DNA from: Martinezella rhizogenes
GTDB lineage: Bacteria > Pseudomonadota > Alphaproteobacteria > Rhizobiales > Rhizobiaceae
Assembly: GCA_013322215.1 (NCBI GenBank)
Contig: JAAMEZ010000021.1
Location: forward strand, 682,001-746,000
Direction of reading: 5' to 3'
DNA: 64,000 nucleotides
The notes under the pieces are model-generated. The model saw only the letters and a list, made by a program, of their open reading frames with translations, was not told the DNA's origin and made no database searches. Numbering within the stretch: the first letter of the stretch is position 1; every line of letters starts with the position of its first letter. Both the position numbers and the translations under genes were made by a program. Shown here in pieces: positions 42,350-59,405 of the stretch.

Positions 42350-42463
42350 CGGCACAAAGAAATAAATATGACTTTTTTCCTCTTGTTTGTGACCGGGCGG
42401 CAAGGCTATATCGCGCGGGCGCTTTCGTTCGATCGCGCTGACTATAGCCACCGGGATATTTTC

Positions 42464-43489
42464 GTGACCATATTGAAATCAGTTTTGACCATTTCAGCTC
42501 TTTGCGCGGCCCTCGGCTTTGCCGCAACGGCAGCTTCTGCCGCCTCCACCAGCTATCCGTTGACCATCGACAATTGCGGCACCAAGGTCACCTTCCAGAA
42601 GGCTCCGGAGCGCGCCATCGGGCTCGGACAGAATAGCGCCGAAATCCTTCTCCTGCTCGGCCTCGAGGGCAAAATGGCCGGCACGGCCTTTTGGCCGAGC
42701 AAGGTTCTGCCGCAACTCGCCGAGGCCAATACCAAGGTCAAACTGCTGACCGTCGAATTCCCGACTTTTGAATCGATCCTCTCTGAAAATCCTGATTTCG
42801 TCGCTGCCGCCCTGCCGAGCCTGATGGGGCCGAGCAGCAAGGTCGCCAAGCGCGAGGATTTCGAAAAGCTCGGCATCCCGACCTATCTATCGCCGAGCAC
42901 CTGCCTCAGCACCGCCGTGGTCAAGGATCAATATGGCAGCCGCGGAGAGCTTTGGAACATGGATCTCCTCTACAAGGAGATCGACGAACTCTCGCAGATC
43001 TTCGACGTGCCCGATCGCGGGCAGGCCTTGATCGCTGACTTCAAGGCCCGCGAAGCCGCGCTGCGCTCCACTGTTTCCAAGGATGGCAAGCAGCTCTCCT
43101 ATGTCTTCTGGTTTTCCAGCCAATCGCCCTCCTCCGACGCCTATCTCGGCGGCAAGAACAGCGCATCCGGCTTCATCGCCGATCTGCTTGGCGGCCATAA
43201 TGCGATTACGGCGGAAGCGGAATGGCCCACGCTCGGCTGGGAGAGCATCATTGCGGCCAACCCTGATGTCATCGTCGTCGCCAGCCTCGACCGCAATCGC
43301 TGGGAGCTCGACAAGCCGGAAGCCAAGATCAACTTTCTCACCACCGATCCCGCCGTCAGCCAGCTAGCCGCGGTCAAGAACAAAGCGATTGTCGTCATGG
43401 ACGGCCAGGCCATGAACCCGACCATCCGGACGATCTATGGCGCCGAGCAGGTCGCCCAGCAGCTCAAGGCGCTTGGTCTCCTGAAGTGA
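42464..43489 (+). CDS. Metal-chelate ABC transporter substrate-binding protein (FepB/BtuF type)
   Basis: 341 residues. A signal peptide (ILKSVLTISALCAALGFAATAASA) is followed by PLTIDNCGTKVTFQKAPERAIGL, the start of the TroA-like helical-backbone receptor fold used for siderophores, haem and cobalamin. EWPTLGWESIIAANPDVIVV is also typical. The ligand is unknown. The GTG at 42464 is used; TTG at 42473 is possible. The stop overlaps the permease GTG by 4 bp. Confidence 0.87.
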   Translation: MTILKSVLTISALCAALGFAATAASAASTSYPLTIDNCGTKVTFQKAPERAIGLGQNSAEILLLLGLEGKMAGTAFWPSKVLPQLAEANTKVKLLTVEFPTFESILSENPDFVAAALPSLMGPSSKVAKREDFEKLGIPTYLSPSTCLSTAVVKDQYGSRGELWNMDLLYKEIDELSQIFDVPDRGQALIADFKAREAALRSTVSKDGKQLSYVFWFSSQSPSSDAYLGGKNSASGFIADLLGGHNAITAEAEWPTLGWESIIAANPDVIVVASLDRNRWELDKPEAKINFLTTDPAVSQLAAVKNKAIVVMDGQAMNPTIRTIYGAEQVAQQLKALGLLK

Positions 43490-44526
43490 TCGATACATAC
43501 CGGACCCTGAAGCAGCTGGCCATTATCGGCCTGCTGCTTTTCGCCTCTCTCGCGGCGATCGGCCTGACGATCGGTGTCAGCGTCGGCATCGGTGATCTAC
43601 CGATCCCGCTTTCAACGACCTTCTACGCCATCACCAACAGGCTGGGATGGACGGGTATCGAACTTAACCGCATCCACGAAACGGTGATCTGGGACTATCG
43701 CCTCAGCCGGGCGTTGGTGGCCGCTTTCTGCGGAGCGGGCCTGGCGCTCTCAGGGGCGATCATGCAGTCGCTCCTTCGCAACCCTCTTGCCGAACCCTAT
43801 GTGCTCGGCATTTCGGCGGGTGCCTCGACTGGCGCGGTGGCCATCGTCATACTCAATATCGGCGCCGGCGCGGTTTCGCTTTCGGCGGGTGCCTTTGCCG
43901 GCGCGTTCGCAGCCTTTTTCTTTGTCGCTCTGCTTTCAAACGGCACACGAGGCGGCGCTGATCGTACCATCCTTGCCGGTGTTGCCGCCTCTCAGCTGTT
44001 CAACGCTGCGACCTCCTATGTCGTGACGACATCGGGAAACGCACAGCAGGCGCGGGATGTGATGTTCTGGCTGCTCGGCAGTTTCGGCGGCGTTCGCTGG
44101 CCGGAATTCATGCTGGTCGCGACCATTGTCGGCTTCGGGCTTGCGGTCTGTCTGCTCTATGCGCGCGTGCTCGACGCGTTCGCCTTTGGCGACGAAGCCG
44201 CCTCGTCTCTTGGCGTCAATGTCGGGCGGGCGCGGATCGGGCTCTTCGCATTGACTGCGATGATGACGGCGGCGATTGTCAGCATGGTCGGTTCGATCGG
44301 CTTTGTCGGCCTCGTCGTGCCGCACGCGGCGCGCTTCTTCGTCGGCCCACTCCATATCCGGCTGCTGCCAGCCTGCGTCATCGTCGGCGCGATCTTCATG
44401 GTGCTGGCGGACATCGCATCGCGCGCCCTCATCCCCCAGCAGGTTCTGCCGATCGGTGTGGTCACGGCACTGGTTGGCGTTCCCTTCTTCTCCATCATTC
44501 TCTACCGGTTCCAGCGCGCATCATGA
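43486..44526 (+). CDS. FecCD-family ABC permease
   Basis: 346 residues with about ten TM segments. GLALSGAIMQSLLRNPLAEPYVLGISAGASTG in order and SIGFVGLVVPHAARFFVG are hallmark motifs. It transports siderophores, cobalamin or haem with the receptor encoded before and the ATPase after. GTG start; ATGA overlap with the ATPase gene. Confidence 0.93.
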   Translation: MIDTYRTLKQLAIIGLLLFASLAAIGLTIGVSVGIGDLPIPLSTTFYAITNRLGWTGIELNRIHETVIWDYRLSRALVAAFCGAGLALSGAIMQSLLRNPLAEPYVLGISAGASTGAVAIVILNIGAGAVSLSAGAFAGAFAAFFFVALLSNGTRGGADRTILAGVAASQLFNAATSYVVTTSGNAQQARDVMFWLLGSFGGVRWPEFMLVATIVGFGLAVCLLYARVLDAFAFGDEAASSLGVNVGRARIGLFALTAMMTAAIVSMVGSIGFVGLVVPHAARFFVGPLHIRLLPACVIVGAIFMVLADIASRALIPQQVLPIGVVTALVGVPFFSIILYRFQRAS

Positions 44527-45284
44527 GCATCAAGGCCGACAACGTCATCTGGAAAATCGGCGCGAAGACCGTACTCGACGGGGTCTCTTTCGAGGCGCCC
44601 GCGGGCAAGATGCTCGGCCTGCTCGGGCCGAACGGCTCGGGCAAGACCTCGCTCCTGCGTCTGCTTGCCGGCCTAAAACGACCGAATTCCGGTCGCATCA
44701 CGCTCGAACAGAAGGATCTGCAGCGCATGTCTCGCAGTTCGATCGCGAGGCGCGTCGCCTTCGTCGAACAGCACAGCACCACAAACGCCAATCTCAAGGT
44801 CATCGATGTCGTAAAGCTCGGCCGGTTTCCGCATCGATCGATGTTTTCCGGCTGGACGTCGGCAGATGACGAGGCCGTCGAAGACGCTCTTGCGCGCGCC
44901 GGCATGAGAGAGAAACGCAACGACCAATGGCAGAGCCTGTCGGGTGGCGAAAAGCAACGCACCCACATCGCACGAGCCCTCGCTCAGGCGCCGAAAGAGC
45001 TGATCCTCGACGAGCCGACCAACCACCTCGATATCCAGCACCAGATCAGCCTGATGCGACTGGTTGCCGGCCTGCCGGTCACCAGCATCATCGCTCTTCA
45101 CGATCTCAACCATGCAGCCATGTTCTGCGATGAATTGATTATCATGCAGCAAGGCAGGATCGTCGCTTCCGGCACGCCGGAAGACGTGTTGACCGAAGAT
45201 CTGCTGAGGACCGTATTTGCTGTCGAGGCTAGGGTCGAAACCTCTCCCCACCACTCCCGGCCCCATATTCACTATCTCCGATGA
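44523..45284 (+). CDS. ABC transporter ATPase, FecE/BtuD type
   Basis: 253 residues. Walker A GPNGSGKTS, signature LSGGEKQRTHIAR, Walker B LILDEPTNHLD and switch His ALHDLNHA. The composition and length fit ATPases of siderophore or cobalamin importers. It ends 157 bp before the short-chain dehydrogenase gene. Confidence 0.93.
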   Translation: MSIKADNVIWKIGAKTVLDGVSFEAPAGKMLGLLGPNGSGKTSLLRLLAGLKRPNSGRITLEQKDLQRMSRSSIARRVAFVEQHSTTNANLKVIDVVKLGRFPHRSMFSGWTSADDEAVEDALARAGMREKRNDQWQSLSGGEKQRTHIARALAQAPKELILDEPTNHLDIQHQISLMRLVAGLPVTSIIALHDLNHAAMFCDELIIMQQGRIVASGTPEDVLTEDLLRTVFAVEARVETSPHHSRPHIHYLR

Positions 45285-45441: not shown

Positions 45442-46209
45442 GTGACGGATAGGCTCAAGGGCAAGATTGCCATCATTTCGGGCGGTGCTACCGGCATGGG
45501 TGGAGCGGCTTCGCGCCTGTTTGCGGCGGAGGGCGCCAAGGTTGCGATCATCGACAGAAACGGCGATGCGGCGGCTGAAACCGTGCGCGAGATCCGCGCT
45601 GCCGGCGGCACGGCGGACCATTGGGTTGCCGATGTTTCCGACGAGGCAGCCGTCAATGCGGCGGTCAAGGGCATCGAGGATCGTTTCGGCGCGGTGACCG
45701 TGCTCTTCAATCACGCCGGCACCATCGTCATCAAGCCGTTCCTCGAAACGACGCTCGAGGAATGGGAATGGCTGCATGGCGTCAATGTCCGCTCGATGTT
45801 CCTCATGACCAAGGCGGTACTGCCGGGCATGATTGCTGCCGGTGGCGGCTCCATCGTCTGCACCTCGTCGATCTCGGCGGTCGCAGCAACTCCGATGGAG
45901 GTGCTCTATGACACGACGAAGGGGGCGGTTCACATGTTCGCCCGCGCCATTGCCGTTGAATTCCGAGATCGCAATATCCGCTGTAATGCCGTATGCCCGG
46001 GCTTCATTCGCACGCCGCATGGACTGCGTGAGGTGGCGGAGTTGCAGGCCCTCGGCGTCGATGTCTCGGACGAGGCAATTGCGGCGCAGCAGGGCCGGAT
46101 CGGCGAGCCCGAAGACGTGGCGCGCGCCGCCCTCTATCTGGCGTCGGATGATTCCAATTTCGTCAACGGCATCCATCTCTTCGTCGACAACGGCTTCACC
46201 GCCATCTGA
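45442..46209 (+). CDS. Short-chain dehydrogenase/reductase
   Basis: 255 residues. The Rossmann motif is SGGATGMGGAASRLFA, followed by the NHAG motif (NHAGT), catalytic Ser in TSSISAVAA and the YxxxK pair in YDTTKGAV. Classical NAD(P)-dependent sugar or alcohol dehydrogenase size. The GTG at 45442 is chosen because TGGGGGAA lies just upstream; an in-frame ATG at 45430 would add four residues. It precedes the ROK regulator and may belong to the sugar conjugate pathway. Confidence 0.9.
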   Translation: MTDRLKGKIAIISGGATGMGGAASRLFAAEGAKVAIIDRNGDAAAETVREIRAAGGTADHWVADVSDEAAVNAAVKGIEDRFGAVTVLFNHAGTIVIKPFLETTLEEWEWLHGVNVRSMFLMTKAVLPGMIAAGGGSIVCTSSISAVAATPMEVLYDTTKGAVHMFARAIAVEFRDRNIRCNAVCPGFIRTPHGLREVAELQALGVDVSDEAIAAQQGRIGEPEDVARAALYLASDDSNFVNGIHLFVDNGFTAI

Positions 46210-46328
46210 TCGCAAATAGCAGTGCATCGTCCGAGCAAGTCGATATTTTTCAATAGGATATGGCTGTCAATTTCGCAGCGCCGATGGTAAGGGAGCTTTA
46301 CGAATGACTTCACCGCCCCGGGTGCCCA

Positions 46329-47540
46329 TTGAGTACTGCTTGGCAACAGACCGGAATTGATGCGCCGCCGCTAACGGAGAGTGCGCGGGCCGTGCTGCGA
46401 ACCATTGCAAGCAACGGCCCCGCCACGAGACCGCAATTGAGCGCGGCGCTGATGTTTTCGAAGCCCACCATGTCGGCAGCCGTCAGCGAGCTTGAGCGGC
46501 ATGACCTGCTTGCGCCGGCCGGGATCAATCGCGGCTCGGTCGGTCGGACCTCCGTCACCTACGGTCTCGGCCCAAAGGCGGGCTTCGTCATCGGCGTCGA
46601 TTGCGGCACGACCCATATCAACGCGATCGCGCGGGGCCTCGATGGTGCGACGCTCACCACCGTCGAAATGCCGCTTGTCGACAAATCCGCTGACGAACGA
46701 TTTCTTCTGATAGAAGATGTCATCGCACGGTTGTTTTCGCAGTTTGAAACGCGGTCGACACCGCTGCGCGCAATCGCGATCGCCCTGCCGAACATCATTT
46801 CCGCATCTCTTGAAAGAATGTCCGGCCGTGAAGCCTTGATACCGGTTCTGGAGCGGCTGCAAGCCACCTATGGCGCGCCCGTACTGCTTGAAAACAACGT
46901 CAACTGCGCAGCCCTTGCCGAATATCACGAAGGATCGGCAAAGCAGTATTCCTTTGCGATCTACATGCAGATCGGCGTGAAGACCGGCATGGGCATCGTG
47001 CTGGATGGCCGGCTTTTCCGCGGCTTCAAAGGTGGCGCCGGCGAAATCGGCCACCTGCCCTTTCCGTGGTCGGAGCACGAGCGGCCGAAATGGCAGCAGG
47101 TGGAAACCTATATGGGATCTGCAGCCCTTCTGGAGCGTGCCGCAGCAAAATGGCCCGCCGGGGAAGGCACGCCGCCGAAGAGTACCAGCGAACTTTTTGC
47201 CCGCGTGGAGCAATCTCCGACTGCGCGCGCCATTGTCGAGCAGCATGCCCGCGATGTCGGGAACCTCGCTGCCGCCTGCGTTAGCGTGCTCGATCCGCAA
47301 CTGATCGTTCTTGGTGGCGGCGTCGGGCAAAACCCGCAATTGCTGCCCGGCGTCAGGGATGTGGTGAAGGAATTGTGCTGGCCGGTGGAAGTGGTCAATG
47401 GCCAGCTATCGAACCAGGCGACCGTTCTTGGCGCCGTGCGTCTCGCCATCGACTTTGCCATGGCGAGACTTTTGGGAGAGGAAGGCAAGACTGCCTTCCT
47501 CTATCCGAGCGCACTGACCATGGATCAGATCAACATCTGA
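46329..47540 (+). CDS. ROK family transcriptional regulator lacking the zinc motif
   Basis: 403 residues. An N-terminal winged helix (about 18-75, VLRTIASNGPATRPQLSAAL, SKPTMSAAVSELE) is fused to a ROK kinase-like domain (VIGVDCGTTHINAI, GVKTGMGIVLDGRLFRG, GGAGEIGHL). The usual CxCGxxGCxE zinc-binding motif after GEIGH is replaced by PFPWSEHERPKWQQVETYMG. NagC/Mlc-type regulators bind sugars or sugar phosphates. The only start compatible with the upstream stop at 46305 is the TTG at 46329, with a weak ribosome site. Its 3' end is 7 bp from the convergent SIS gene. Confidence 0.88.
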   Translation: MSTAWQQTGIDAPPLTESARAVLRTIASNGPATRPQLSAALMFSKPTMSAAVSELERHDLLAPAGINRGSVGRTSVTYGLGPKAGFVIGVDCGTTHINAIARGLDGATLTTVEMPLVDKSADERFLLIEDVIARLFSQFETRSTPLRAIAIALPNIISASLERMSGREALIPVLERLQATYGAPVLLENNVNCAALAEYHEGSAKQYSFAIYMQIGVKTGMGIVLDGRLFRGFKGGAGEIGHLPFPWSEHERPKWQQVETYMGSAALLERAAAKWPAGEGTPPKSTSELFARVEQSPTARAIVEQHARDVGNLAAACVSVLDPQLIVLGGGVGQNPQLLPGVRDVVKELCWPVEVVNGQLSNQATVLGAVRLAIDFAMARLLGEEGKTAFLYPSALTMDQINI

Positions 47541-47547
47541 GCAAGGC

Positions 47548-48555
47548 TCAAATATCGCGCTTGGTATCGGTCTGGCGGTAGCGGAATTCGCAGACCGGCA
47601 AGCCCGCATCTTCCGACAGCGTCGCAATCAGCAACTGCGCTGGGATGGCCTGCAAGATGGCATCGCCAATGCCTTCGGAGAAGGCCGGCACATGGATGAC
47701 GACGAGATTGTCACCATCCACGATATCGGTCCGCGCGGTGACGAGAACCGAGGGGATGCCGAAGCCGGCGAGATCCTGCGCAAGCTTGACCTCACGGCCA
47801 TTGCCGAAGAGCAGCACGCCGCTATCCCTGTCGTTCGGCTCCATCGGCCCATGAAGGAAATTCAGCGTATCCCAATCCTGAGCAGCGACGCGTGCGGCTT
47901 CACGCACGAGGAGTGCGGCATAGCCGGCCGTGCCCAACGCCGTGCCCGCGCCCACGCAATCGATAGATTTCTTGCCGGCCAGAAGCCTGGCCGCCTTATC
48001 GGCCCGAGCACGCGTCTGTTTCAGGACATCTTCGGCGCGGCTCGAAATTTCACTCCAATTCGTTCCCGATGAACGACCGGCCCTGTCGATGAGCAGAGCT
48101 GCGCTCAGCAACGATCCGAGATAGCTCGTCGTATTCGGACCGCTGTCAGCACCGCTTTCGCTTGCGATCATATGCTTCACGACCCGTGAAATCGGCGTGC
48201 CGTCTGCCTTGGCAATACCGTAGGATTGAACGCTCGGCCTAAGCTCCATGGCACGCGCCGGTTCTTCACTGCGCCCGGAAGCGGAAAAGGCGATGTAAGC
48301 ATCGCCGGCATCGACTGACGGGTCGTAGAGATCGGTGCCGGGCAAAGCGAACGCCCGCAAGCCCTGGGAGCGCATCTGCGCCGCGGCAACGACTGCCGCA
48401 TAAAGGCTTGCGCCGATACCGACAAGAACCGTCGATCCGCGCTTGACTGGCTCGAGATCGAGCGTTTCCAGCCGCTTGGAGACGGCATTGAAGCAGGTGT
48501 TGAGAGCAGCGGGCTGCAATGCGATCGCTTCGCGGTAGGGCACTCTGTCTGTCAT
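47548..48555 (-). CDS. Double SIS-domain sugar isomerase/deglycase-like protein
   Basis: 335 residues with two sugar isomerase (SIS) domains. The first has VLVGIGASLYAAVVAAA and the phosphosugar loop AFSASGRSEEP; the second has CVGAGTALGTAGYAALLVREAARV and WDTLNFLHGPMEPN. The layout is that of the GlmS isomerase half, AgaS and FrlB, which act on amino sugar phosphates or glycated amino acid phosphates. The start at 48555 has TGGA upstream with 7-nt spacing; ATGs at 48561 and 48567 are alternatives. Last gene of the kinase-importer operon. Confidence 0.85.
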   Translation of the reverse strand: MTDRVPYREAIALQPAALNTCFNAVSKRLETLDLEPVKRGSTVLVGIGASLYAAVVAAAQMRSQGLRAFALPGTDLYDPSVDAGDAYIAFSASGRSEEPARAMELRPSVQSYGIAKADGTPISRVVKHMIASESGADSGPNTTSYLGSLLSAALLIDRAGRSSGTNWSEISSRAEDVLKQTRARADKAARLLAGKKSIDCVGAGTALGTAGYAALLVREAARVAAQDWDTLNFLHGPMEPNDRDSGVLLFGNGREVKLAQDLAGFGIPSVLVTARTDIVDGDNLVVIHVPAFSEGIGDAILQAIPAQLLIATLSEDAGLPVCEFRYRQTDTKRDI

Positions 48556-48581
48556 GGTCATTTCCATCTGTTTGAAGGAGA

Positions 48582-48606
48582 GGCGGCCGAGCAGATAGCG
48601 GCCGCC
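48582..48606 (-). terminator. Hairpin between binding-protein and SIS genes
   Basis: Arms GGCGGCC and GGCCGCC form a 7-bp GC stem with an 11-nt loop, 19 bp past the binding-protein stop. There is no T-run. Same placement as hairpins in three other ABC operons of this window. Confidence 0.5.
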
Positions 48607-48624
48607 CCCGAAGATTGGCGGATA

Positions 48625-49512
48625 TCAATCCAGCTTCATGTAGTCGGCAAAGCGCGCGGCATCGTTGATGGTGACCTTGCCGAGCTTGTTTTCGCCAAGA
48701 CCCCATTTTTCGAAGATCTTGGCGTAGGAGCCATCGTCGATCATCGATTGCATCGCCGCGGCAAGCGCATCGCGCAGCTTCGGGTCATCCTTGCTGACGA
48801 GCATCGCCTGGTAACCAACGGCATACTGGGCACCGGTGATGAGTTCTAGCTTCTTGTTGCCCGCGGGCTGATGCTGAAGGCTGTAGGCCGCAACACCCGT
48901 CGTATCCATGGAAAGATCGACGCGACCGCTCTGCAGAGCGATCTTGATCTGATCGTTCGACGGGAACTGCATGACGTTGAGCGGCTTGTCGGCCGGGCAG
49001 AGCGTCTTTTGCTTGTCGAGGAGCTGAAGTGGTATCGAGCCCTGAACGGCGCCGGCGTTGAGCCCGCAGGCATCCTTCAGCTTGTGCACGCCCTTGGGAT
49101 TGCCCTCCAGCACGATGATGCTGGTGCCCTCAAGCATGTAGTTGACGACATCGACGATCTTTTCGCGTTCGGCGAAATCGCCGAAAGCGGACATGCCCAT
49201 ATCGAAGCGGCCGGCCTGGATGCCCGGAATGATGCTGGCGAACTGCGCCGGCACGTCGGTAAATTTTACGCCGAGGCGAGCGCCCATCTCATCGCGCAGT
49301 TCGCGCTCGAGACCGATGATCGTCTTGTTGTCTTCGCCGTAGAAATCGTAAGGCGGAGTCTGCGGCTCCGTCCCGACCTTGATCTCGCCCGCCGACTGGA
49401 TCTTTTCGGGCAGCATGGCGTGCAGCTTCTGGTCGACGCCATCAGCCCAAGCGGTAGAGCTTGCCACCAAGATTGCAGCGAACATGATTGTGAATTTGGT
49501 CTTCCCTGTCAT
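48625..49512 (-). CDS. Amino-acid-type ABC substrate-binding protein (family 3)
   Basis: 295 residues with signal peptide (MTGKTKFTIMFAAILVASSTAWA). The SBP_bac_3 fold shows IKVGTEPQTPPYDFYGEDNKTIIG, LEREL and RFDMGMSAFGDFAEREKIVDVV. It would bind a polar amino acid, opine or amino-sugar conjugate; the kinase and SIS genes favour a sugar-bearing ligand. AAGGGGAA lies upstream of the ATG. Confidence 0.9.
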   Translation of the reverse strand: MTGKTKFTIMFAAILVASSTAWADGVDQKLHAMLPEKIQSAGEIKVGTEPQTPPYDFYGEDNKTIIGLERELRDEMGARLGVKFTDVPAQFASIIPGIQAGRFDMGMSAFGDFAEREKIVDVVNYMLEGTSIIVLEGNPKGVHKLKDACGLNAGAVQGSIPLQLLDKQKTLCPADKPLNVMQFPSNDQIKIALQSGRVDLSMDTTGVAAYSLQHQPAGNKKLELITGAQYAVGYQAMLVSKDDPKLRDALAAAMQSMIDDGSYAKIFEKWGLGENKLGKVTINDAARFADYMKLD

Positions 49513-49576
49513 CGGTATTCCCCTTTTTTTCCTGGTGCACGTGAAGGACGTGCGGCCTCATTGCGGTGCCTGCCAG

Positions 49577-50365
49577 TCAGTGCATCCGTCTCAAAAACGC
49601 CTGAGTTCTTTCCTGCCTTGGATTGTCGAGCACCTCGCGCGCCGGCCCTTCCTCGACGACGACACCCTGATCCATGAACACGATCCGATCGGCGACCTCG
49701 CGGGCGAAGGAAAGCTCATGAGTGACGACGATCATTGTCATGCCATCGGCGGCAAGCTTGCGCATGACATTCAGCACCTCGCCGACGAGTTCGGGATCAA
49801 GTGCGGATGTGGGCTCGTCGAAAAGCATCAGTTTCGGGTTCATCGCCAGCGCTCTGGCGATCGCTACGCGCTGCTGCTGACCGCCGGAGAGCTGATAGGG
49901 ATAGGCGCTGCCGCGGCCTTCGAGATCCACCATCTTCAGAAGCTCGCGCGCCCGGCTCAAAGCCTCCTCGCGCGACTTTCCGCGATTGAGGATCGGTGGC
50001 TGAGAAATGTTCGTCAGCACGTCCTGATGGGCGAAAAGATTGAAGCGCTGGAACACCATGCCGATGTCGCGGCGCTGCACGGCAAGCTCCTTGCCGCTCA
50101 TCTCATGCAAGGCATCACCCCGCTCGTGATAGCCGATCAACTGGCCATCGACGAGAATGCGGCCGGCCGTCATTCGCTCGAGATGATTGATGCATCTGAG
50201 GAAGGTGGATTTTCCACTGCCCGACGGGCCGAGAAGGCAGACGACCTCGCCTTTGCTGACGGAGAGATTGATGCCCTTCAACACTTCGAGCGAGCCGAAG
50301 GATTTGTGCACGTCGATCGCCTCGACGATGGGCTTTGCTGCGGTCGATATCATGGGGATGCTCAT
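49577..50365 (-). CDS. Amino-acid-type ABC transporter ATPase (GlnQ-like)
   Basis: 262 residues. Walker [10 protein letters not shown], signature [13 protein letters not shown], Walker [13 protein letters not shown] and switch His VVTHELSFA are all standard. ATGA overlap of 4 bp with the permease gene. It energises the one-permease importer of this operon. Confidence 0.94.
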
Positions 50366-51228
50366 CCGTTTCTCCCTTCCGCGCGCATGAGGCGCAGAGC
50401 GCCTTGCACGAAGCCGGGCGCCTCGTGTGTCGACTTTCCAAGCCGGCGTTCGATGACGAGCTGGATGGCGGAAGCGATCGTGGTCATCACGAGGTACCAG
50501 ATGCTGGCGACGATCAGCAGTTCGATGATCAGGAAGTTCCGGGCGTAGATGTTCTGCGCACGCGTCAGCAGATCCTGGGCCGCGACGACGGAGACAAGAG
50601 AGGTCGTCTTCAGCATCGAGATCGTCTGATTGCCGATCGGCGGGATGATGACGCGCAGCGCCTGGGGGAAGATGATGCGCAGCATGGATTGGACCGGCGT
50701 ATAGCCGAGCGCCTTGGCGGCCTCCTGCTGACCATTGTCGACGGCGAGCAAACCGCCGCGAATGATCTCCGCCATATAGGCGGCTTCATTGAGGCTGAGG
50801 GCAAGAAGTGCTGCGATGAAGGCCGTAACGATCGAGTTGGTGTCGATGTGGACGGAACCGATATCGATGCTCGGAATGAAAAGCTGGATATTGAACCAGA
50901 AGATGATCTGGACCAGCAGCGGCGTGCCGCGGAAGAACCAGATATAGAGGCTTGCGAAACCGGATAGCACCGGATTGGATGCAAGCCGCATCGTGGCAAG
51001 GATCGCGCCGGCAACGATGCTGATGATCATCGACAACACGGTGAACAGGATCGTCAGCTTGATCCCATCCAGGATCGTATCGTCGAAGATATATTGCGGC
51101 ACCGCCGACCAGCTGATGTGGCGGCTGGTGCCGACCATGAATACAAGCAGCGCGACAACCGCGATCAGCAGGACAGCGATCACGCGCTGCCCCCAGTTTC
51201 GCGCGGGAATGATCTTCCGGGAGGTCAT
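50362..51228 (-). CDS. Amino-acid-type ABC permease (HisM/GlnP-like)
   Basis: 288 residues with about five TM segments. [32 protein letters not shown] carries the EAA loop region of polar amino acid permeases; only one permease gene is present, so the channel should be a homodimer. The start at 51228 overlaps the kinase stop by 4 bp and has GGAGAG upstream. Confidence 0.92.
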
Positions 51229-52178
51229 GCGGCTCTCCAATCATCGGCAGTTTTCAGCTCGCCGTCGATATGCGGCGGCGGCAAGGTGGCCGGCAGGTCA
51301 CCAAGGCTGAGCTTGCGGGCCAGTACCATCGCCCCCGCCACCGGCGGCTCGTTGAGAAGGGTCAGCGCCAGATCAGGCAGACGGTCACCAAGGGCCATCT
51401 TGAAGGCCGCGAGAAGCCGCGGCTGACGGGCAATGACGCCGCCACCGGTGACGACATCGCCACGCGGCGCACCGCGCCGGAGCAATTGCGCCGTGAGCAC
51501 GGCGAGTGCGGCACCCGCCTCTGTGATGACCTTGTCGGCATATCGTGAACCCGCATCTGCTGCGTCGAATACCAGCGGTGCAAGCCGGCCTATGCCGGCC
51601 GCCGATCCGATCTCGCCCAACGCCCGCCCGATCTCGATCGGCGACGATATGGCTAGGGCTTCGATGAGGCTCCGACCGAGGGGATCGAGCGGCTCCCCCT
51701 GGTCAAGCGCAAAGCGGATGGTCCGGGCTGCTTCCCGCACAAGACCGCTCGCACTTCCCTCATCACCCAGATACCAACCCCAGCCACCGGATGCGATCAT
51801 CCTGCGCGCGGCGTCGCGCGAGACCGCAATCGAACCGGTACCGCTGATGACGGAAATGCCGCTCGTCTTGCCCGCTGCCGGCAACAGCAGTTCGGAGTCG
51901 TTGAGAACCAGGACCGTGCCGGGCAAGTGCCGGGCAAGCCTTGTCTGCAGTGCAAGCCGATCCTCATCGCTGTCGCAGCCATGCGCACCGACGACCGTGA
52001 TCTTCGGCGTCGCTCCAGTCGTTGCGACAAGCAGCGAAACGAGCGCCTGCGCATCCGCATCATGATCGATGCGAGCGCGCCATTCCGCTGTGTAAACGAC
52101 CCTCTCGCCAACCGTCTCGCCACCCATCTCGGCGATGAGCTGCGTTTTGGTTCCGCCAATATCAATTCCAGCAATCAT
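51225..52178 (-). CDS. BadF/BadG-type sugar kinase (N-acetylglucosamine kinase-like)
   Basis: 317 residues. The ASKHA ATPase motifs are GIDIGGTKTQL, SVISGTGSIAVS and GGWGWYLGDEGSASGL, followed by VVTGGGVI. This pattern is typical of N-acetylglucosamine and related amino-sugar kinases. It would phosphorylate the imported ligand or its sugar part before the SIS protein acts. First gene of the operon, with a promoter and palindrome directly upstream. The start at 52178 (MIAGIDIGG) is clear. Confidence 0.87.
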   Translation of the reverse strand: MIAGIDIGGTKTQLIAEMGGETVGERVVYTAEWRARIDHDADAQALVSLLVATTGATPKITVVGAHGCDSDEDRLALQTRLARHLPGTVLVLNDSELLLPAAGKTSGISVISGTGSIAVSRDAARRMIASGGWGWYLGDEGSASGLVREAARTIRFALDQGEPLDPLGRSLIEALAISSPIEIGRALGEIGSAAGIGRLAPLVFDAADAGSRYADKVITEAGAALAVLTAQLLRRGAPRGDVVTGGGVIARQPRLLAAFKMALGDRLPDLALTLLNEPPVAGAMVLARKLSLGDLPATLPPPHIDGELKTADDWRAA

Positions 52179-52195
52179 GCGTCCCAATCCATTTG

Positions 52196-52212
52196 TTAGG
52201 CAACTTACCTAA
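52196..52212. promoter_or_regulatory. Candidate ROK operator upstream of the kinase operon
   Basis: TTAGGCAACTTACCTAA, a 17-bp palindrome with 8-bp half sites and a single mismatched pair. It lies 17 bp before the kinase start and next to the -10 box, so a bound repressor would block transcription. ROK regulators bind TTAGG/CCTAA-like palindromes, and a ROK gene sits at the other end of this cluster. Confidence 0.65.
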
Positions 52213-54920: not shown

Positions 54921-56117
54921 TCATCCCTTCGCCTTCTTGATCGCAATCTCCATTTCCTTGAATGGCCGGCGGAAGGTCGGCACGCGCTCCGTGACCTCGG
55001 GGAATGTGCCGAACGGCCTATGTGGCTCGGCCTGATACCAGAAGGCGACCGAGGAAATATCGTCGGAGCGGCGGTTGGCATGACCATGCTCGATCGTCAC
55101 GCGGATGCTCTTCTGGAAAATCGCCGGATCCTCGATATGCCAGCGATAGAGCGTCACGGGTTCGGTCCAGTTCGGACCACCGCCGGCGATGATGCCGTGA
55201 TAGGGCGCGCTATATTCCTGTGTCGGGCACCACGCCGTATTGAAATAGTCCTCCGTGCCGGTGCCGTGCAGCGTCGGCGGCCAGGCATCGTTGGCGCCGA
55301 GCGCGGATTCCGGCCGAGGCTCGATCAGCGCTGCCTTCGGCCCGATGCGCGGATCGGGCTTGCGCACGGTATCAGGCACGGAAAGCCCCTGCTCACCGTC
55401 GATGAAGATCATGTCATCGCCTTCGCCGTACCAGTCCCACACGTCGGAGCGACGGCGCGAATAGACGCTGTAGAGAACGCCGACATAATGACCGCGGCCC
55501 TCTGCCTCCAGGATCGTATAATTCTCTTTACCGTCGACATTCTCGCCGCCGAAGAGATATTCCTCGTTGGTGAGGCCTGCGTCGCTCATGCCCTGCGGCT
55601 GCGACTGGCGATACTGCGCGTGGAAGCGTCCCATGCCCTCTTCGAGCTCATCATGCAATTCGAGATCGACATAGTAGTAGAACAGCAGGTCGTGTTCGGC
55701 CTCGTTCGTCACCGTCAGCGTCATGTGCGAGCCGAACGGCATCGGGAAATAGCAGTTGAATGCCTTGCCGTCCTCCGGGCTCGCCTGCATCGGCAGACTG
55801 GCGTAGTTTGCCGTGCGGCCATGGCCCATGCCGAAGAAATCGCCGATCGGCGCCTCGATGCTCGGCTCCGTCTCGCCATCCCAATAGGCGCGCAGCACGA
55901 TCTTGCGCAGGAAATTCTCGCTCTCACAGGCAAGCGTCGCCCAGATATGGGTGATGATACCGGCACCCGAATGCTCCGCGATGATCTCGGTCTTTCCCGG
56001 CTCGATATGAAAGCGATCGTCGTTGCCGCCGGTGCGGTCATAGCTCGAAAAGCGGCGCGTCTTTGCTTCGCGCAGTTTTGCAAGCCCGCGCAGGGGTGAA
56101 AGGCCGAGATTGCTCAT
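54921..56117 (-). CDS. GH172 (DUF2961) family glycoside hydrolase
   Basis: 398 residues, a single DUF2961 domain (jelly-roll type) without signal peptide. RFSSYDRTGGNDDRF, GAGIITHIWATL, GDFFGMGHG and HGTGTEDYFNTAWCP are conserved family patterns. Characterised GH172 members act on difructose dianhydride I/inulobiose or on alpha-arabino- and fructofuranosides, and work as multimers. Cytoplasmic location and the upstream sugar importer point to intracellular cleavage of an imported oligosaccharide. Last gene of the operon. Confidence 0.88.
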   Translation of the reverse strand: MSNLGLSPLRGLAKLREAKTRRFSSYDRTGGNDDRFHIEPGKTEIIAEHSGAGIITHIWATLACESENFLRKIVLRAYWDGETEPSIEAPIGDFFGMGHGRTANYASLPMQASPEDGKAFNCYFPMPFGSHMTLTVTNEAEHDLLFYYYVDLELHDELEEGMGRFHAQYRQSQPQGMSDAGLTNEEYLFGGENVDGKENYTILEAEGRGHYVGVLYSVYSRRRSDVWDWYGEGDDMIFIDGEQGLSVPDTVRKPDPRIGPKAALIEPRPESALGANDAWPPTLHGTGTEDYFNTAWCPTQEYSAPYHGIIAGGGPNWTEPVTLYRWHIEDPAIFQKSIRVTIEHGHANRRSDDISSVAFWYQAEPHRPFGTFPEVTERVPTFRRPFKEMEIAIKKAKG

Positions 56118-56145
56118 GAAGGTCTCCTGTCTTGAATGAAGACGG

Positions 56146-56994
56146 CTATTTCAGGCCGCTGGTCTTCAGCGAATCCATGATCTGCCGCTGGAAAATCACG
56201 AAGAGAATGAGGGTGGGGATGGCGACGATGGTGGAGGCCGCCATCATGTAGTTCCAGGATGCCGAATACTGGCTTTTGAAATTGGCGATGCCGACCTGCA
56301 CCATCCAGAGGTTCGGATTGGAAGTGATGGTGAGCGGCCAGAGAAAGGAATTCCAATTGGCAAGGAAAAACAGGATGGCGAGCGCCGACATGATCGGCCG
56401 GCTCAAGGGCAGGATGATGCTCCAATAGATACGCCAGTATCCTGCACCGTCGATCACCGCAGCCTCCTCGATCTCGCGCGGCAGCGAAAGATAGTATTGC
56501 CGCAGCAGGAAAATGCCGAAGGCATTGAAGATTGCCGGCACGATCAGGCCCGCGTAGGAATTGATCATGCCCATTGCCTTGACGATGATGAAAAGCGGCA
56601 CGATCACGACCGGCAGCGAAACGAGAAAGGTCGAGAAGATCGCAAGGAAGATGATCTCGCGCCCGGGAAAGCGCAGGCGCGCCAGCGCATAACCCGCCAT
56701 GGTATGGAAGAACAGCGCGACGATCGTCACCGTCGCCGAGACGAAGAAGCTGTTGAGCATGTAGCGGATGAAGGGAACGCCGGTCAGCACATAGATGAAA
56801 TTATCAAGCGTCGGCGCTTCCGGTATCAGCGACGACGAGAAGGATTCGGCTGCCGGCTTGAAGGCGATCGATACCATCCAGAGCAGCGGAAACAGCGTCA
56901 TCAGTGCCAATATGGCTGATATCAGCATCCACAGGCAGCGCACCAGCGTGACCTGCGATCGCGCGAAATAGGCATTGGAAGCGTCATTCAGCAT
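56146..56994 (-). CDS. Carbohydrate ABC permease, MalG/LacG type
   Basis: 282 residues with six TM segments and the EAA loop EIEEAAVIDGAGYWRIYWSIILP. ILFVIFQRQIMDSLKTSGLK is the typical C-terminus of CUT1 permeases. The ATG at 56994 overlaps the other permease gene by 11 bp. Confidence 0.92.
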   Translation of the reverse strand: MLNDASNAYFARSQVTLVRCLWMLISAILALMTLFPLLWMVSIAFKPAAESFSSSLIPEAPTLDNFIYVLTGVPFIRYMLNSFFVSATVTIVALFFHTMAGYALARLRFPGREIIFLAIFSTFLVSLPVVIVPLFIIVKAMGMINSYAGLIVPAIFNAFGIFLLRQYYLSLPREIEEAAVIDGAGYWRIYWSIILPLSRPIMSALAILFFLANWNSFLWPLTITSNPNLWMVQVGIANFKSQYSASWNYMMAASTIVAIPTLILFVIFQRQIMDSLKTSGLK

Positions 56995-57928
56995 GATCGA
57001 AACGCCCTCCGCGCGTGACGGCAAAGAAGATCGCGGTGACAGCCATGAGAGCGATGACGAGGATGGACGACATCGCAGCGGCATAGCCGAAGGCACCGAA
57101 GGAGAAGGCCTGCTGGTAGATGTAGACGATCAGCACCGCCGTCGAATTGGCAGGCCCGCCCTTGGTCATGACATAGATGATGTCGAAGGCCTGGGCGCCG
57201 GCAACGGCAGCAACCATCGAGACCATGAAAACGAAGAAGCTGGTGGGTTTCAACAGCGGCAGCGTGATGTATCGGAAGCGTTTGACCGGTCCCGCACCGT
57301 CGATCATCGCCGCCTCGTAATATTCCTTGGGTATGTCCTGCAGTCCGCCGAGGAAGATCAGCATATAGAAGCCCATCAGGAACCAGACGCTGACGAGCAC
57401 GACCGTGATCAATGCGAAGTTCGGATTGCCGAGGAAGGAAATCGGGTTGAGGCCGAGGCTTGTCATGGTCTGGCCGACGACGCCGATCTTGTCGATCACC
57501 ATGAATTGCCAGACAAGGGCGACGACGACGAGGCTCACCATGTTCGGAGCAAAGAACATAGAGCGGATGACCGCATTGAAGCGATTGGTCTGCTGCACGA
57601 GAAGCGCCAGCCCCAGGCCCGTGACATAGAGCGACGGCACGAGCATGACGGCATAAAGGGCCGTCACCCTGGCTCCTTTCCAGAACAGGGGATCATGCCA
57701 CATGCGGATATAGTTCTTGGCGCCGACGAAATTGTAACCGCCGAAGCCGTTGACTTCGTAGACGCTCAGCACAAGCGACAGAAGCATCGGCACGCCGAGA
57801 AACAGAAAGAGGCCGAGCGCATCGGGCAGCACGAAGAGGTAGCCCGCGATCCATTCGCGATGGCGGGCAGAAAGGCCTCCGCGCCTGCCGTTTGCATGGC
57901 TTGTCGTCGCATCTGCAATTGTCGTCAT
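56984..57928 (-). CDS. Carbohydrate ABC permease, MalF/LacF type
   Basis: 314 residues with six TM segments and EAA loop YYEAAMIDGAGPVKRFRYITLP. Partner of the MalG-type subunit. No ATPase gene is found in this operon, so the pair must use a shared MsmK/UgpC-like ATPase encoded elsewhere, as is common for CUT1 systems. Confidence 0.92.
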   Translation of the reverse strand: MTTIADATTSHANGRRGGLSARHREWIAGYLFVLPDALGLFLFLGVPMLLSLVLSVYEVNGFGGYNFVGAKNYIRMWHDPLFWKGARVTALYAVMLVPSLYVTGLGLALLVQQTNRFNAVIRSMFFAPNMVSLVVVALVWQFMVIDKIGVVGQTMTSLGLNPISFLGNPNFALITVVLVSVWFLMGFYMLIFLGGLQDIPKEYYEAAMIDGAGPVKRFRYITLPLLKPTSFFVFMVSMVAAVAGAQAFDIIYVMTKGGPANSTAVLIVYIYQQAFSFGAFGYAAAMSSILVIALMAVTAIFFAVTRGGRFDHAE

Positions 57929-57950
57929 GATCTCGTCCCGAAAAGAGAGA

Positions 57951-57981
57951 CGGCCGCTTAAGCTGATAGCCGCAGCGGCCG
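57951..57981 (-). terminator. Hairpin between binding-protein and permease genes
   Basis: Arms CGGCCGCT and AGCGGCCG give a perfect 8-bp stem with a 15-nt loop, 10 bp past the stop of the sugar-binding protein gene. No T-run; probably a mRNA-stabilising or partial termination element. Confidence 0.6.
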
Positions 57982-57991
57982 GCGATTCTTC

Positions 57992-59344
57992 TTAGAGGAT
58001 CGGCGCGCCGCTATAGGAGCCGAGGAACGCGTCGAGCTGCTGCGAGGCGGAGGTCGCCGTCGCCTGGGGATCGGCGCCGCCGAGCTGCGTCTGCTGGATC
58101 GCATCGGAGATGATCTTGTAGACCTCCGGCGGCACGCGCGGTTCGGCACGAGCGCCCGGATAGACATCGGAGGCGAATTTGCCGATCATGCCGGTCTTGA
58201 AGGCATCGCCGCCGGCCGCGAGCGCGCTTTCGCGCGGAGGCATGTCGGACTTGCCCTTGGTGCACCAGTCGGCAACGCGCTGGACGGAGTCCTTTTCCTT
58301 GGAAGCCAGCGCCCAGGCGCAGAATTGCGCCGCTGCGTCCGGGTTCTTGCTCTTGGCATTGGCGACGAAGGCCCAGCCACCGCCGACGGTCACATATTTG
58401 CCGTTTGGCGGTGTCGGCAGGCGGAAGACGCCATATTTGAAATCCTTGGCATTGCTCTGCAATTGCGAGATGCCCCAGATGCCGACATTCTGGATGGCGC
58501 AATAGCCCGATGCGAGATTGGCAACCGTGTCGTTCGCACCGCTGCCCATGACCTGACGCGGGGCAGCGCCCGAATTGACGGCATCCTGCCAGAATTTCAA
58601 TGCCTGCACGGTGGCGGGGGAATCGAAGGCACTCTTGCCGTCCTTACCCTGAAATTCACCGCCACCTTGCCAGAGGAAGGGATACCAGGTGAAATTCTGA
58701 TAATAGCCCGGCTGGGTCTCGAACAGCACGCCGAAGCGCTTCGGCGTCGTCAGCTTCTTGGCAAGTTCGAGCAGGTCGTCCCAGGTTTTCGGAACATCGT
58801 TCTCGTTCAGCTTCGCCTCTTCGAAAGCCTTGACCGAATAATACATGGCCATCGGCTCGACTTCCATCGGAATGCCGTAGATCTTGCCGTCGACCATGCG
58901 GTTGGCAATCACGCTCTCCGGAAAATCCTCCTTGGCATCGATGTGGGGCGTCAGATCCTGCAGGACGCCGCCATTGTAATAACGCAGGAAATCACCCGGC
59001 GAGATGAGGAAGATGTCTGGCCCCTCGCCGGAGGCAAATGCGGTCGCGAGCTTCGGCCCGTTGATATACTCCGCGTTCGGCACATATTCGAGCTCGACCT
59101 TCTGCGGATGGCTGTCGTTCCAGGCCGCAACCGCCTTCTCGAACCAGTCGATCTGGCTCTGGACCGGGCCGCCCGGTGCGTAGAACTGCCAGAACTTCAA
59201 GGGTGCGCTCTGTGCGCGGACGGCCATGCGCGACACATAGGGAAACCCGCTCAGCCCGGCAGCCGCGCCGGCCGCGAGGATTGCACCGCCCTTGAGCACG
59301 CCGCGACGGGTTGCGGCGGTGATGAACTTATCCTTACCAGTCAT
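57992..59344 (-). CDS. Sugar ABC transporter substrate-binding protein with Tat signal
   Basis: 450 residues, family 1 solute-binding protein. The N-terminus has TRRGVLKGGAILAAGAAAG, a twin-arginine signal, with probable cleavage after VRAQSA. APLKFWQFYAPGGPVQSQIDWFEKA in its order and AFASGEGPDIFLISPGDFLRY are typical of CUT1 receptors. The ligand is probably a di- or oligosaccharide that the GH172 enzyme splits. GGAGGAAGTC precedes the ATG at 59344. Confidence 0.9.
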   Translation of the reverse strand: MTGKDKFITAATRRGVLKGGAILAAGAAAGLSGFPYVSRMAVRAQSAPLKFWQFYAPGGPVQSQIDWFEKAVAAWNDSHPQKVELEYVPNAEYINGPKLATAFASGEGPDIFLISPGDFLRYYNGGVLQDLTPHIDAKEDFPESVIANRMVDGKIYGIPMEVEPMAMYYSVKAFEEAKLNENDVPKTWDDLLELAKKLTTPKRFGVLFETQPGYYQNFTWYPFLWQGGGEFQGKDGKSAFDSPATVQALKFWQDAVNSGAAPRQVMGSGANDTVANLASGYCAIQNVGIWGISQLQSNAKDFKYGVFRLPTPPNGKYVTVGGGWAFVANAKSKNPDAAAQFCAWALASKEKDSVQRVADWCTKGKSDMPPRESALAAGGDAFKTGMIGKFASDVYPGARAEPRVPPEVYKIISDAIQQTQLGGADPQATATSASQQLDAFLGSYSGAPIL

Positions 59345-59405
59345 GACTTCCTCCCATTTTTCATCTTGCCGCCACCACACTCCTCCCGGGTGACGGTACC
59401 TCACT

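What the first reader, a model, noticed from the sequence alone, without database searches (positions are those of the whole stretch)
45442..52178. Probable pathway for a sugar-amine or sugar-amino acid conjugate
An amino-acid-type importer with one permease is cotranscribed with a BadF-type amino-sugar kinase and a double SIS protein, and accompanied by a ROK regulator and a sugar-dehydrogenase-like SDR. Fructoselysine and fructose-asparagine pathways combine a kinase and a SIS deglycase in the same way, but use other kinase families. The ligand could be an Amadori compound, an opine of the santhopine type or another glycated amine.
Basis: partly seen in the sequence, partly recalled or inferred. 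Interest (0 to 1): 0.65.

Follow-up and report, generated by a model that had tools for sequence, protein, structure and literature searches.

The report
Transport cassette for a sugar-amine nutrient
Soil and root bacteria related to Rhizobium carry a compact set of six genes, apparently with its own switch, that most likely imports a sugar joined to an amino acid (or an amino sugar), tags it with phosphate and splits it for food; the exact nutrient is still unknown.

Summary
On the minus strand lie a BadF-family kinase, one amino-acid-type permease, an ATPase, an SBP_bac_3 receptor and a double-SIS protein; a ROK regulator converges on them. All 29 examined loci with this importer keep the five-gene order, in mostly unrelated surroundings; ROK is adjacent in 28. 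The SDR neighbours the cassette in 5 of 27 named relatives and is not part of it. A palindrome TTAG-N9-CTAA precedes the kinase in 29 of 30 sequences and is one of 5 in the 8.16 Mb genome. This looks like a self-contained, ROK-controlled import-phosphorylate-split unit.

The ligand is unsettled. For a sugar-amino acid conjugate: the importer type, an invariant carboxylate-type Arg in the receptor, and a separate glucosamine-type locus in the genome. Against an Amadori compound in particular: kinase and SIS protein are nearer to amino-sugar enzymes (MurNAc/GlcNAc kinases, GlmS, glucosamine-6-P deaminases) than to FrlB. An N-substituted glucosamine (Heyns compound), split to fructose-6-phosphate and an amino acid, would reconcile both. 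A free hexosamine is the main rival. New variant of a known kind.

The parts
52196..52212 (.). Probable ROK operator, TTAG-N9-CTAA palindrome, just upstream of the kinase start
   Evidence: Within 200 bases upstream of the kinase in 29 of 30 sequences (window plus 29 loci, one duplicate pair; L018 lacks it), about 0.004 hits expected in all from composition; only hit in the window; one of 5 places in the genome, 84 for the reversed control pattern
51225..52178 (-). BadF-family sugar kinase (amino-sugar kinase-like)
   Evidence: PF01869 62.5 bits; nearest solved structure MurNAc/GlcNAc kinase 8zo3, E 6e-37 with the family profile; upstream TTG at 52187 also possible
50362..51228 (-). Single amino-acid-type ABC permease
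   Evidence: PF00528, TIGR01726 above cut-off; upstream TTG start at 51240 also possible
49577..50365 (-). Amino-acid-type ABC ATPase
   Evidence: PF00005; best NCBIfam models TcyN, EhuA, GlnQ, all below their cut-offs
48625..49512 (-). SBP_bac_3 periplasmic receptor
   Evidence: PF00497 101.8 bits; R116, D203 and T204 invariant in 30 of 30 aligned sequences
47548..48567 (-). Double-SIS phosphosugar enzyme, proposed deaminase/deglycase
   Evidence: PF01380; E223 and H239, 16 residues apart, invariant in 26 of 26 and aligned with a Glu and His of GlmS, FrlB and AgaS; model pLDDT 91.7, nearest folds GlmS and GlcN-6-P deaminases
46329..47540 (+). ROK-family regulator, convergent to the operon
   Evidence: PF00480 141.8 bits, and an N-terminal MarR-like hit of 25.3 bits, under its cut-off of 27; adjacent in 28 of 29 cassettes
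45448..46209 (+). SDR-family oxidoreductase, local neighbour, probably not part of the cassette
   Evidence: PF13561; 96-98% identical neighbour in 5 of 27 named relatives only

Best explanation
A self-contained uptake-and-cleavage cassette for a sugar-amino acid conjugate. The receptor binds the ligand through its carboxylate end; the single permease (as a homodimer) and ATPase import it; the BadF kinase phosphorylates the sugar at C6; the double-SIS enzyme uses Glu223 and His239 to open the sugar and move a proton between C1 and C2, releasing the amino acid and a hexose-6-phosphate. ROK binds the palindrome before the kinase gene and lets go when the sugar or phosphosugar is present. The kinship of SIS protein and kinase suggests a 2-amino-2-deoxy sugar carrying the amino acid (Heyns type), giving fructose-6-phosphate; an Amadori compound, giving glucose-6-phosphate, is the other form (listed below as a sub-case). 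Shown here: gene content, conserved order, conserved Glu/His and receptor residues, conserved palindrome. Inferred: ligand, phosphorylation site, reaction products, ROK as the factor that binds the palindrome.
For: Conserved five-gene order plus ROK in mostly unrelated contexts. The receptor Arg that holds the alpha-carboxylate in amino-acid receptors (role recalled; R75 of GlnBP aligned) is R116, invariant in 30 of 30, and is also aligned in SocA of pAtC58, which is 29% identical (identified as SocA by its place beside repABC and its gene set). The eight nearest outside receptor loci that I opened (35-39% identical, of 43 such listed rows) all have amino-acid-type permeases: seven with a sugar isomerase/epimerase gene beside a second, by my reading opine-like, ABC operon, one with a sarcosine-oxidase-like flavoenzyme for secondary amines. 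SIS Glu/His pair conserved. The genome has an SMb21218 orthologue at 74% and another BadF-SIS-sugar ABC locus (my reading). Sister cassettes with one sugar-importer type carry a gene like the 3-hydroxy-D-aspartate aldolase BhcC in 13 of 24 loci (one such protein identified). In four loci of that type the SIS gene belongs to the window's SIS lineage while ROK (four) and kinase (the three that were in the kinase tree) do not, so the two cassette types probably feed similar phosphosugars to it. Precedent: SIS deglycases GfrE/GfrF split glucoselysine-6P and fructoselysine-6P to fructose-6P or glucose-6P and lysine (PMC12675984, passages).
Against: No ligand, growth or enzyme data. The amine-binding Asp of amino-acid receptors (D157 of GlnBP, recalled) aligns without gaps with Thr204; an invariant Asp sits one residue earlier, D203, so an alpha-amine contact is uncertain. 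The SIS profile scores NagB-II (5e-16) and GlmS (3e-15) above the deglycase-named 3eua (2e-8) and FrlB 8glr (4e-4); fold Z is 39 for GlmS, 37 for the Pyrococcus deaminase, 26.9 for FrlB. The kinase is of the MurNAc/GlcNAc kinase type. Outside receptors L143 and L144 lack equivalents of R116 and D203, and L145 has Tyr at D203, so kinship to them says little about the ligand. 9 of 27 cassette genomes lack an SMb21218-like protein, so there the cassette could serve glucosamine. No further enzyme gene (asparaginase, oxidase, peptidase) is conserved with the cassette. PMC12675984 calls glucoselysine an Amadori compound and mentions Heyns products only as side products of its synthesis; that glucoselysine is a Heyns-type compound is my recollection.
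Confidence: 0.4

Rival explanations
1. Catabolism of a free hexosamine (glucosamine, galactosamine, mannosamine or a close relative): import, 6-phosphorylation, deamination by the NagB-II-like SIS enzyme to a ketose-6-phosphate and ammonia.
For: Kinase nearest to MurNAc/GlcNAc kinases; SIS nearest to GlmS and GlcN-6-P deaminases; kinase plus SIS plus ROK plus ABC importer is the layout of the S. meliloti locus that I take for SMb21216-21221 (identified by layout, the record is not annotated), whose kinase is argued to be a glucosamine kinase from mutant fitness (PMC11378808, passages); 9 of 27 cassette genomes lack an SMb21218-like protein; the receptor's amine-binding Asp is not in its usual place.
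Against: The window genome and 18 of 27 cassette genomes have an SMb21218-like SIS protein, 16 of the 18 at 66% identity or more; an amino-acid-type importer with an invariant carboxylate-type Arg is an odd choice for a sugar without a carboxylate; the Lys near the C-terminus of GlmS, SMb21218 and the C38 SIS protein (AKSV, TKVT, TKVV) is absent; three genomes hold this cassette and a sugar-importer version side by side.
Confidence: 0.32
2. Sub-case of the best explanation: an Amadori-compound (fructosyl-amino acid) pathway working like Frl/Fra but with a BadF kinase, giving glucose-6-phosphate and the amino acid. Its share is contained in the 0.4 given above.
For: Same logic of importer, kinase and SIS protein; soc genes for Amadori compounds occur in Rhizobiaceae (PMC8262997, passages); receptor 29% identical to SocA; the C-terminal FRYR of the SIS protein resembles RRYY of FrlB more than the Lys motif of GlmS.
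Against: SIS sequence and fold are closer to GlmS/NagB-II than to FrlB; no PfkB kinase; no amadoriase or Gfo/Idh gene as in soc.
Confidence: 0.16
3. The importer carries a free amino acid and shares an operon with an unrelated amino-sugar salvage pair.
For: Most solved relatives of the receptor are named as amino-acid receptors.
Against: Order kept in 29 of 29 loci, with the importer genes between kinase and SIS genes; one palindrome precedes the whole gene row.
Confidence: 0.1

Closest known systems
Sinorhizobium meliloti glucosamine locus SMb21216-SMb21221
   Same: ABC importer, sugar kinase, SIS protein and ROK regulator in one cluster (locus identified by layout)
   Different: Kinase of PfkB type (my reading) and sugar-type ABC importer; its SIS protein gives only a 43-residue local match to the window's (E 0.07); the window genome carries a separate orthologue
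frl / fra / gfr glycated-amino-acid pathways
   Same: Uptake, 6-phosphorylation and SIS-type cleavage; the Glu/His pair aligns in FrlB
   Different: PfkB kinase (recalled) or PTS instead of BadF; SIS branch different; FrlR in E. coli (GntR family recalled) rather than ROK
NagK / NagB-II (SIS-type) amino-sugar catabolism
   Same: BadF-type kinase plus double-SIS deaminase; nearest solved relatives of both proteins
   Different: Amino-acid-type importer; no deacetylase gene; C-terminal segment differs from that of GlmS
soc (santhopine) locus of Agrobacterium pAtC58
   Same: SBP_bac_3 receptor (29% identical) with an amino-acid-type importer, for deoxyfructosyl-glutamine
   Different: FAD oxidoreductase and Gfo/Idh enzyme, LacI regulator; no kinase or SIS gene in the stretch

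Membership tests
Frl/Fra/Gfr glycated-amino-acid deglycase pathway | SIS-fold enzyme with conserved general acid/base Glu and His | tested here: met
   E223/H239 invariant in 26 of 26, aligned with FrlB and GlmS residues; catalytic role and GlmS numbers recalled
Frl/Fra/Gfr glycated-amino-acid deglycase pathway | PfkB kinase or PTS for 6-phosphorylation | tested here: not met
   Kinase is BadF family
Frl/Fra/Gfr glycated-amino-acid deglycase pathway | SIS protein nearer to FrlB than to GlmS/NagB-II | tested here: not met
   Profile: 8eol 5e-16, GlmS 3e-15, 3eua 2e-8, FrlB 8glr 4e-4; Z 39 GlmS, 26.9 FrlB. No entry named FraB was identified in the lists
Frl/Fra/Gfr glycated-amino-acid deglycase pathway | Cleaves a phosphorylated sugar-amino acid | not testable with these tools
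   Needs enzyme assay
NagB-II-type amino-sugar deaminase | Nearest characterised SIS relatives are GlcN-6-P deaminases and GlmS | tested here: met
   at only about 16-20% identity
NagB-II-type amino-sugar deaminase | Deaminates GlcN-6-P | not testable with these tools
   Needs enzyme assay
Amino-acid-type (PAAT) ABC importer | SBP_bac_3 receptor and HEQRo-type permease | tested here: met
   PF00497 and TIGR01726 over cut-off
Amino-acid-type (PAAT) ABC importer | Arg and Asp that hold the alpha-amino acid | tested here: inconclusive
   Arg met: R116 invariant in 30 of 30. Asp: the usual position aligns with Thr204, with an invariant Asp one residue earlier. Roles recalled from GlnBP
BadF-family sugar kinase | PF01869 over curated cut-off, with conserved ATPase motifs | tested here: met
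   62.5 vs 31.5 bits; D9, G11-T15, D97, G116-S119 invariant in 16 of 16
ROK regulator of the operon | ROK protein beside a conserved palindrome before the operon | tested here: met
ROK regulator of the operon | ROK binds that palindrome | not testable with these tools
   Needs gel shift
soc santhopine pathway | FAD oxidoreductase SocD and Gfo/Idh SocC with the receptor | tested here: not met
   Neither is in the cassette; both lie in the pAtC58 stretch

The most novel reading that the evidence does not exclude
The cassette is a pathway for Heyns compounds (N-(2-deoxyglucos-2-yl) amino acids, formed from fructose and amino acids): an amino-acid-type importer, a BadF kinase acting on N-substituted glucosamine, and a SIS enzyme from the glucosamine-6-phosphate deaminase side of the family that releases an amino acid instead of ammonia. 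It would be one branch of a wider kinase-SIS-ROK family in Alphaproteobacteria that has paired with at least three importer types.
Probability: 0.2. Interest if true: 0.65.

Novelty: new variant of a known kind. Interest (0 to 1): 0.46.

Why it matters
Glycated amino acids occur in decaying plant material and in plants, and few bacterial routes to them are known. A compact six-gene unit with one conserved palindrome gives a directly testable route, and the sister cassettes with other importers give a ready comparison set for finding the ligands of SIS enzymes that databases name only 'phosphosugar isomerase'.

Tried and rejected
First thought that the SIS protein had lost a catalytic Glu (the E of E-x-x-H-G-P). 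Counting on GlmS (numbers recalled) showed that this residue is not the catalytic one; the catalytic Glu aligns with invariant E223. Rejected; my first notebook entry still holds the error and the second corrects it.

First thought that D203 of the receptor is the amine-binding Asp of amino-acid receptors. On re-reading for this report, the usual position aligns with Thr204 and D203 is one residue earlier. I weakened the claim and lowered the best explanation from 0.45 to 0.40 for this, and raised the free-hexosamine rival from 0.30 to 0.32 (also Amadori sub-case 0.17 to 0.16, Heyns case 0.22 to 0.20, free amino acid 0.08 to 0.10).

First thought from memory that SMb21217 was a BadF kinase and a homologue. 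pSymB gave no BadF hit over the cut-off, and the protein reads as PfkB-type (my reading, not scanned). SMb21218 gives only a 43-residue match to the window SIS. Rejected as homologue, kept as an analogue. PMC4961836 (passages) predicted galactosamine, not glucosamine, for that locus.

SDR as part of the pathway: rejected on 5 of 27 and because the window's only TTAG-N9-CTAA lies before the kinase.

The receptor model was poor (pLDDT 66.9) and was not used. The FAD enzyme in L145 looked like an amadoriase but is nearest to monomeric sarcosine oxidase. The L143 receptor is not SocA. The epimerase of L143 gave no blastp match to FrlC at E 1e-3. A search for an operator shared by the kinase and ROK upstream regions found nothing consistent, so autoregulation of ROK is not supported.

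Literature: searches with Amadori/Rhizobium/deglycase terms (15 of 21 listed), BadF with glucosamine kinase and SIS (1 listed), Heyns with GlcN-6-P deaminase (10 of 164 listed) and BhcC with sugar ABC (2 listed) showed no paper whose title or abstract start describes this gene set; only open-licence papers are held and most hits were seen as listings.
Full report
What is there. The window lies in an 8.16 Mb genome; the nearest named relatives by the SIS protein are Rhizobium tropici, lusitanum, multihospitium and dioscoreae strains, 91-93% identical. The minus strand carries, in order, a BadF-family kinase, one amino-acid-type ABC permease, its ATPase, an SBP_bac_3 receptor and a double-SIS protein; the plus strand carries an SDR and a ROK regulator whose end meets the end of the SIS gene. 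All frames are intact.

It is a real unit. Relatives of the SIS protein were found in 11 of 297 genomes of the order, the own genome included, and in 121 stretches of named genomes, of which the best 80 were kept. Among the 90 loci examined (L017-L106), 29 have the amino-acid-type importer; all 29 keep kinase-permease-ATPase-receptor-SIS, and 28 keep the convergent ROK gene (in L018 the contig ends beside the SIS gene). L017 and L048 are the same contig, so the distinct count is 28. Gene calls around the 27 named loci L027-L053 show no other gene family recurring beside the cassette except among close relatives (my own gene caller, so single calls are rough). The six genes thus sit as a block in different surroundings, in Rhizobium, Phyllobacterium, Brucella, Skermanella, Inquilinus and Arboricoccus. 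The SDR is adjacent only in L027-L030 and L036.

Regulation. The 200 bases before the kinase hold TTAG-N9-CTAA in 29 of 30 sequences including the window; L018 lacks it; about 0.004 hits were expected in all from base composition. The window has one site, 52196-52212. The whole genome has 5 places, against 84 for the reversed control pattern. Of the 61 sister-cassette loci scanned (L019-L026, L054-L106), 5 hold the exact pattern (L024, L026, L054-L056), by position near the start of the sugar-importer operon or between that operon and the SIS gene. With the adjacent ROK gene this points to one local regulator for the operon. Binding was not tested, and no matching site was found before ROK.

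The SIS protein. Glu223 and His239, 16 residues apart, are invariant in 26 of 26 and align with a Glu and His of E. coli GlmS, FrlB and AgaS (the GlmS numbers E488 and H504 and their role are recalled). The predicted structure is confident (pLDDT 91.7, pTM 0.92). Nearest folds are GlmS (Z 39.0, rmsd 2.5, 335 aligned) and Pyrococcus GlcN-6-P deaminase (37.1, 2.6, 320), then NagB-II (33.4, 2.6, 312) and FrlB (26.9, 2.6, 288). The family profile gives NagB-II 5e-16, GlmS 3e-15, the unnamed SIS protein 9otr 1e-8, the deglycase-named 3eua 2e-8, FrlB 8glr 4e-4. So the enzyme sits on the amino-sugar side of the family, though at about 16-20% identity. One feature points the other way: the C-terminal segment reads FRYRQTDTK, without the Lys found in GlmS, SMb21218 and the C38 SIS protein, and closer to RRYY of FrlB.

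The kinase. With the family profile the best solved relatives are a MurNAc/GlcNAc kinase (8zo3, 6e-37), an archaeal hexokinase (2e2n, 3e-25) and human GlcNAc kinase (4e-13). This suggests an amino-sugar-like substrate.

The receptor. R116, invariant in 30 of 30, aligns with the Arg that holds the alpha-carboxylate in glutamine-type receptors (alignment; role recalled). The usual amine-binding Asp aligns with Thr204; an invariant Asp, D203, sits one residue earlier. So a carboxylate contact is likely and an alpha-amine contact is uncertain. SocA of pAtC58 (receptor for deoxyfructosyl-amino acids; identified by its place beside repABC and its gene set) is 29% identical over 235 residues and keeps the Arg. 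As a solved structure SocA (5l9o) ranks behind generic glutamine-type receptors. Among 603 plasmid records with a match, 7 have their best place at 80% or more and 596 under 60%. I opened eight of the 43 listed rows outside the cassette: seven have one amino-acid-type permease, a sugar isomerase/epimerase gene and a GntR regulator beside a second ABC operon (opine-like by my reading) with an Xaa-Pro peptidase gene; one (L145) has permease, ATPase, a sarcosine-oxidase-like flavoenzyme and a LacI regulator. Three of these receptors were aligned: L143 and L144 lack equivalents of R116 and D203, L145 keeps the Arg and has Tyr at D203. This kinship is only a hint.

Other amino-sugar routes in the genome. 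The S. meliloti locus that I take for SMb21216-21221 (by layout; the record is not annotated) has a kinase that reads as PfkB type, an SIS protein, a sugar ABC importer and ROK. SMb21217 is argued to be a glucosamine kinase from mutant fitness (PMC11378808, passages); another paper predicted galactosamine for the locus (PMC4961836, passages). The window genome has an SMb21218 orthologue at 74% and a further locus with a BadF kinase, a GlmS/AgaS-like SIS protein and a sugar ABC importer (importer and neighbours by my reading). Of 27 genomes with the cassette, 18 have an SMb21218-like protein and 9 do not. In three genomes (Rhizobium sp. BK313, Rhizobium sp. P38BS-XIX, R. lusitanum JHI1118) the cassette coexists with a sister cassette that has a sugar importer. 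This lowers, but does not remove, the case for free glucosamine.

A wider family. The kinase-SIS-ROK core is shared by sister cassettes with at least two kinds of sugar importer. One kind (24 loci, L020 and L101 being one contig) has a gene like 3-hydroxy-D-aspartate aldolase BhcC in 13 of 24; the one such protein scanned scores 668.7 bits against a cut-off of 690 for BhcC and matches solved BhcC at 6e-170. None of the 29 amino-acid-importer loci showed it within the fetched stretch. One Mesorhizobium cassette (L111) holds a gene over the cut-off for 3,5-dioxohexanoate:acetyl-CoA acetone transferase. A Klebsiella plasmid has ROK, SIS, BadF kinase and a YfcC-family protein. In the SIS tree (quick method, 85 rows) the SIS proteins of L054, L055, L056 and L108 fall inside the window's lineage (starred branches force two changes of importer type for the group), while ROK of these four and the kinases of L054, L056 and L108 group with their own sugar-importer type (FastTree). 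An SIS gene of this lineage therefore seems to work with either importer, which suggests similar phosphosugars. The trees contain long branches, so this is moderate evidence.

Reading. The cassette most likely imports, phosphorylates and splits one compound. A sugar-amino acid conjugate explains the importer type, the carboxylate-type Arg, the redundancy with a glucosamine locus and the amino-acid enzyme in sister cassettes. The enzyme kinships favour an amino-sugar core. A Heyns compound, an N-substituted glucosamine, would satisfy both; the Gfr system shows that SIS deglycases can split glucoselysine-6-phosphate (PMC12675984, passages; that paper calls glucoselysine an Amadori compound, and its Heyns-type structure is recalled). 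Free hexosamine remains a serious rival, and an Amadori compound is possible.

Noticed in passing
window 54921-60410: A DUF2961 protein (277 bits), two sugar-type ABC permeases, a sugar receptor and a LacI-type regulator look like another operon, perhaps for an oligosaccharide (all but DUF2961 named by reading the sequence).
   Followed up: no
window 42368-45284: What reads as an iron-siderophore-type ABC importer (receptor, permease, ATPase) lies directly upstream of the SDR gene; also beside the cassette in L029, L030 and L036.
   Followed up: no
L054, L055, L056, L108: Cassettes whose SIS gene belongs to the window's lineage while ROK, importer and (where present) kinase belong to another: apparent exchange of the SIS gene.
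   Followed up: yes
L026:10501-11655 and 12 other loci of the same importer type: A gene like 3-hydroxy-D-aspartate aldolase BhcC recurs beside kinase-SIS-ROK cassettes with a sugar importer; its role there is unexplained.
   Followed up: partly
L109:5985-16807: Klebsiella plasmid with two neighbouring sugar-amine-type modules: ROK, SIS, BadF kinase, YfcC family; and LacI, SIS, fructoselysine-kinase-like PfkB, amino-acid ABC importer.
   Followed up: partly
L051: A genome labelled Mycobacterium sp. KBS0706 carries a cassette whose SIS protein groups with those of Inquilinus; the label may be wrong.
   Followed up: no
L111:3930-4862: A gene over the cut-off for 3,5-dioxohexanoate:acetyl-CoA acetone transferase (557 bits, cut-off 430) inside a Mesorhizobium sugar-importer cassette.
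   Followed up: partly
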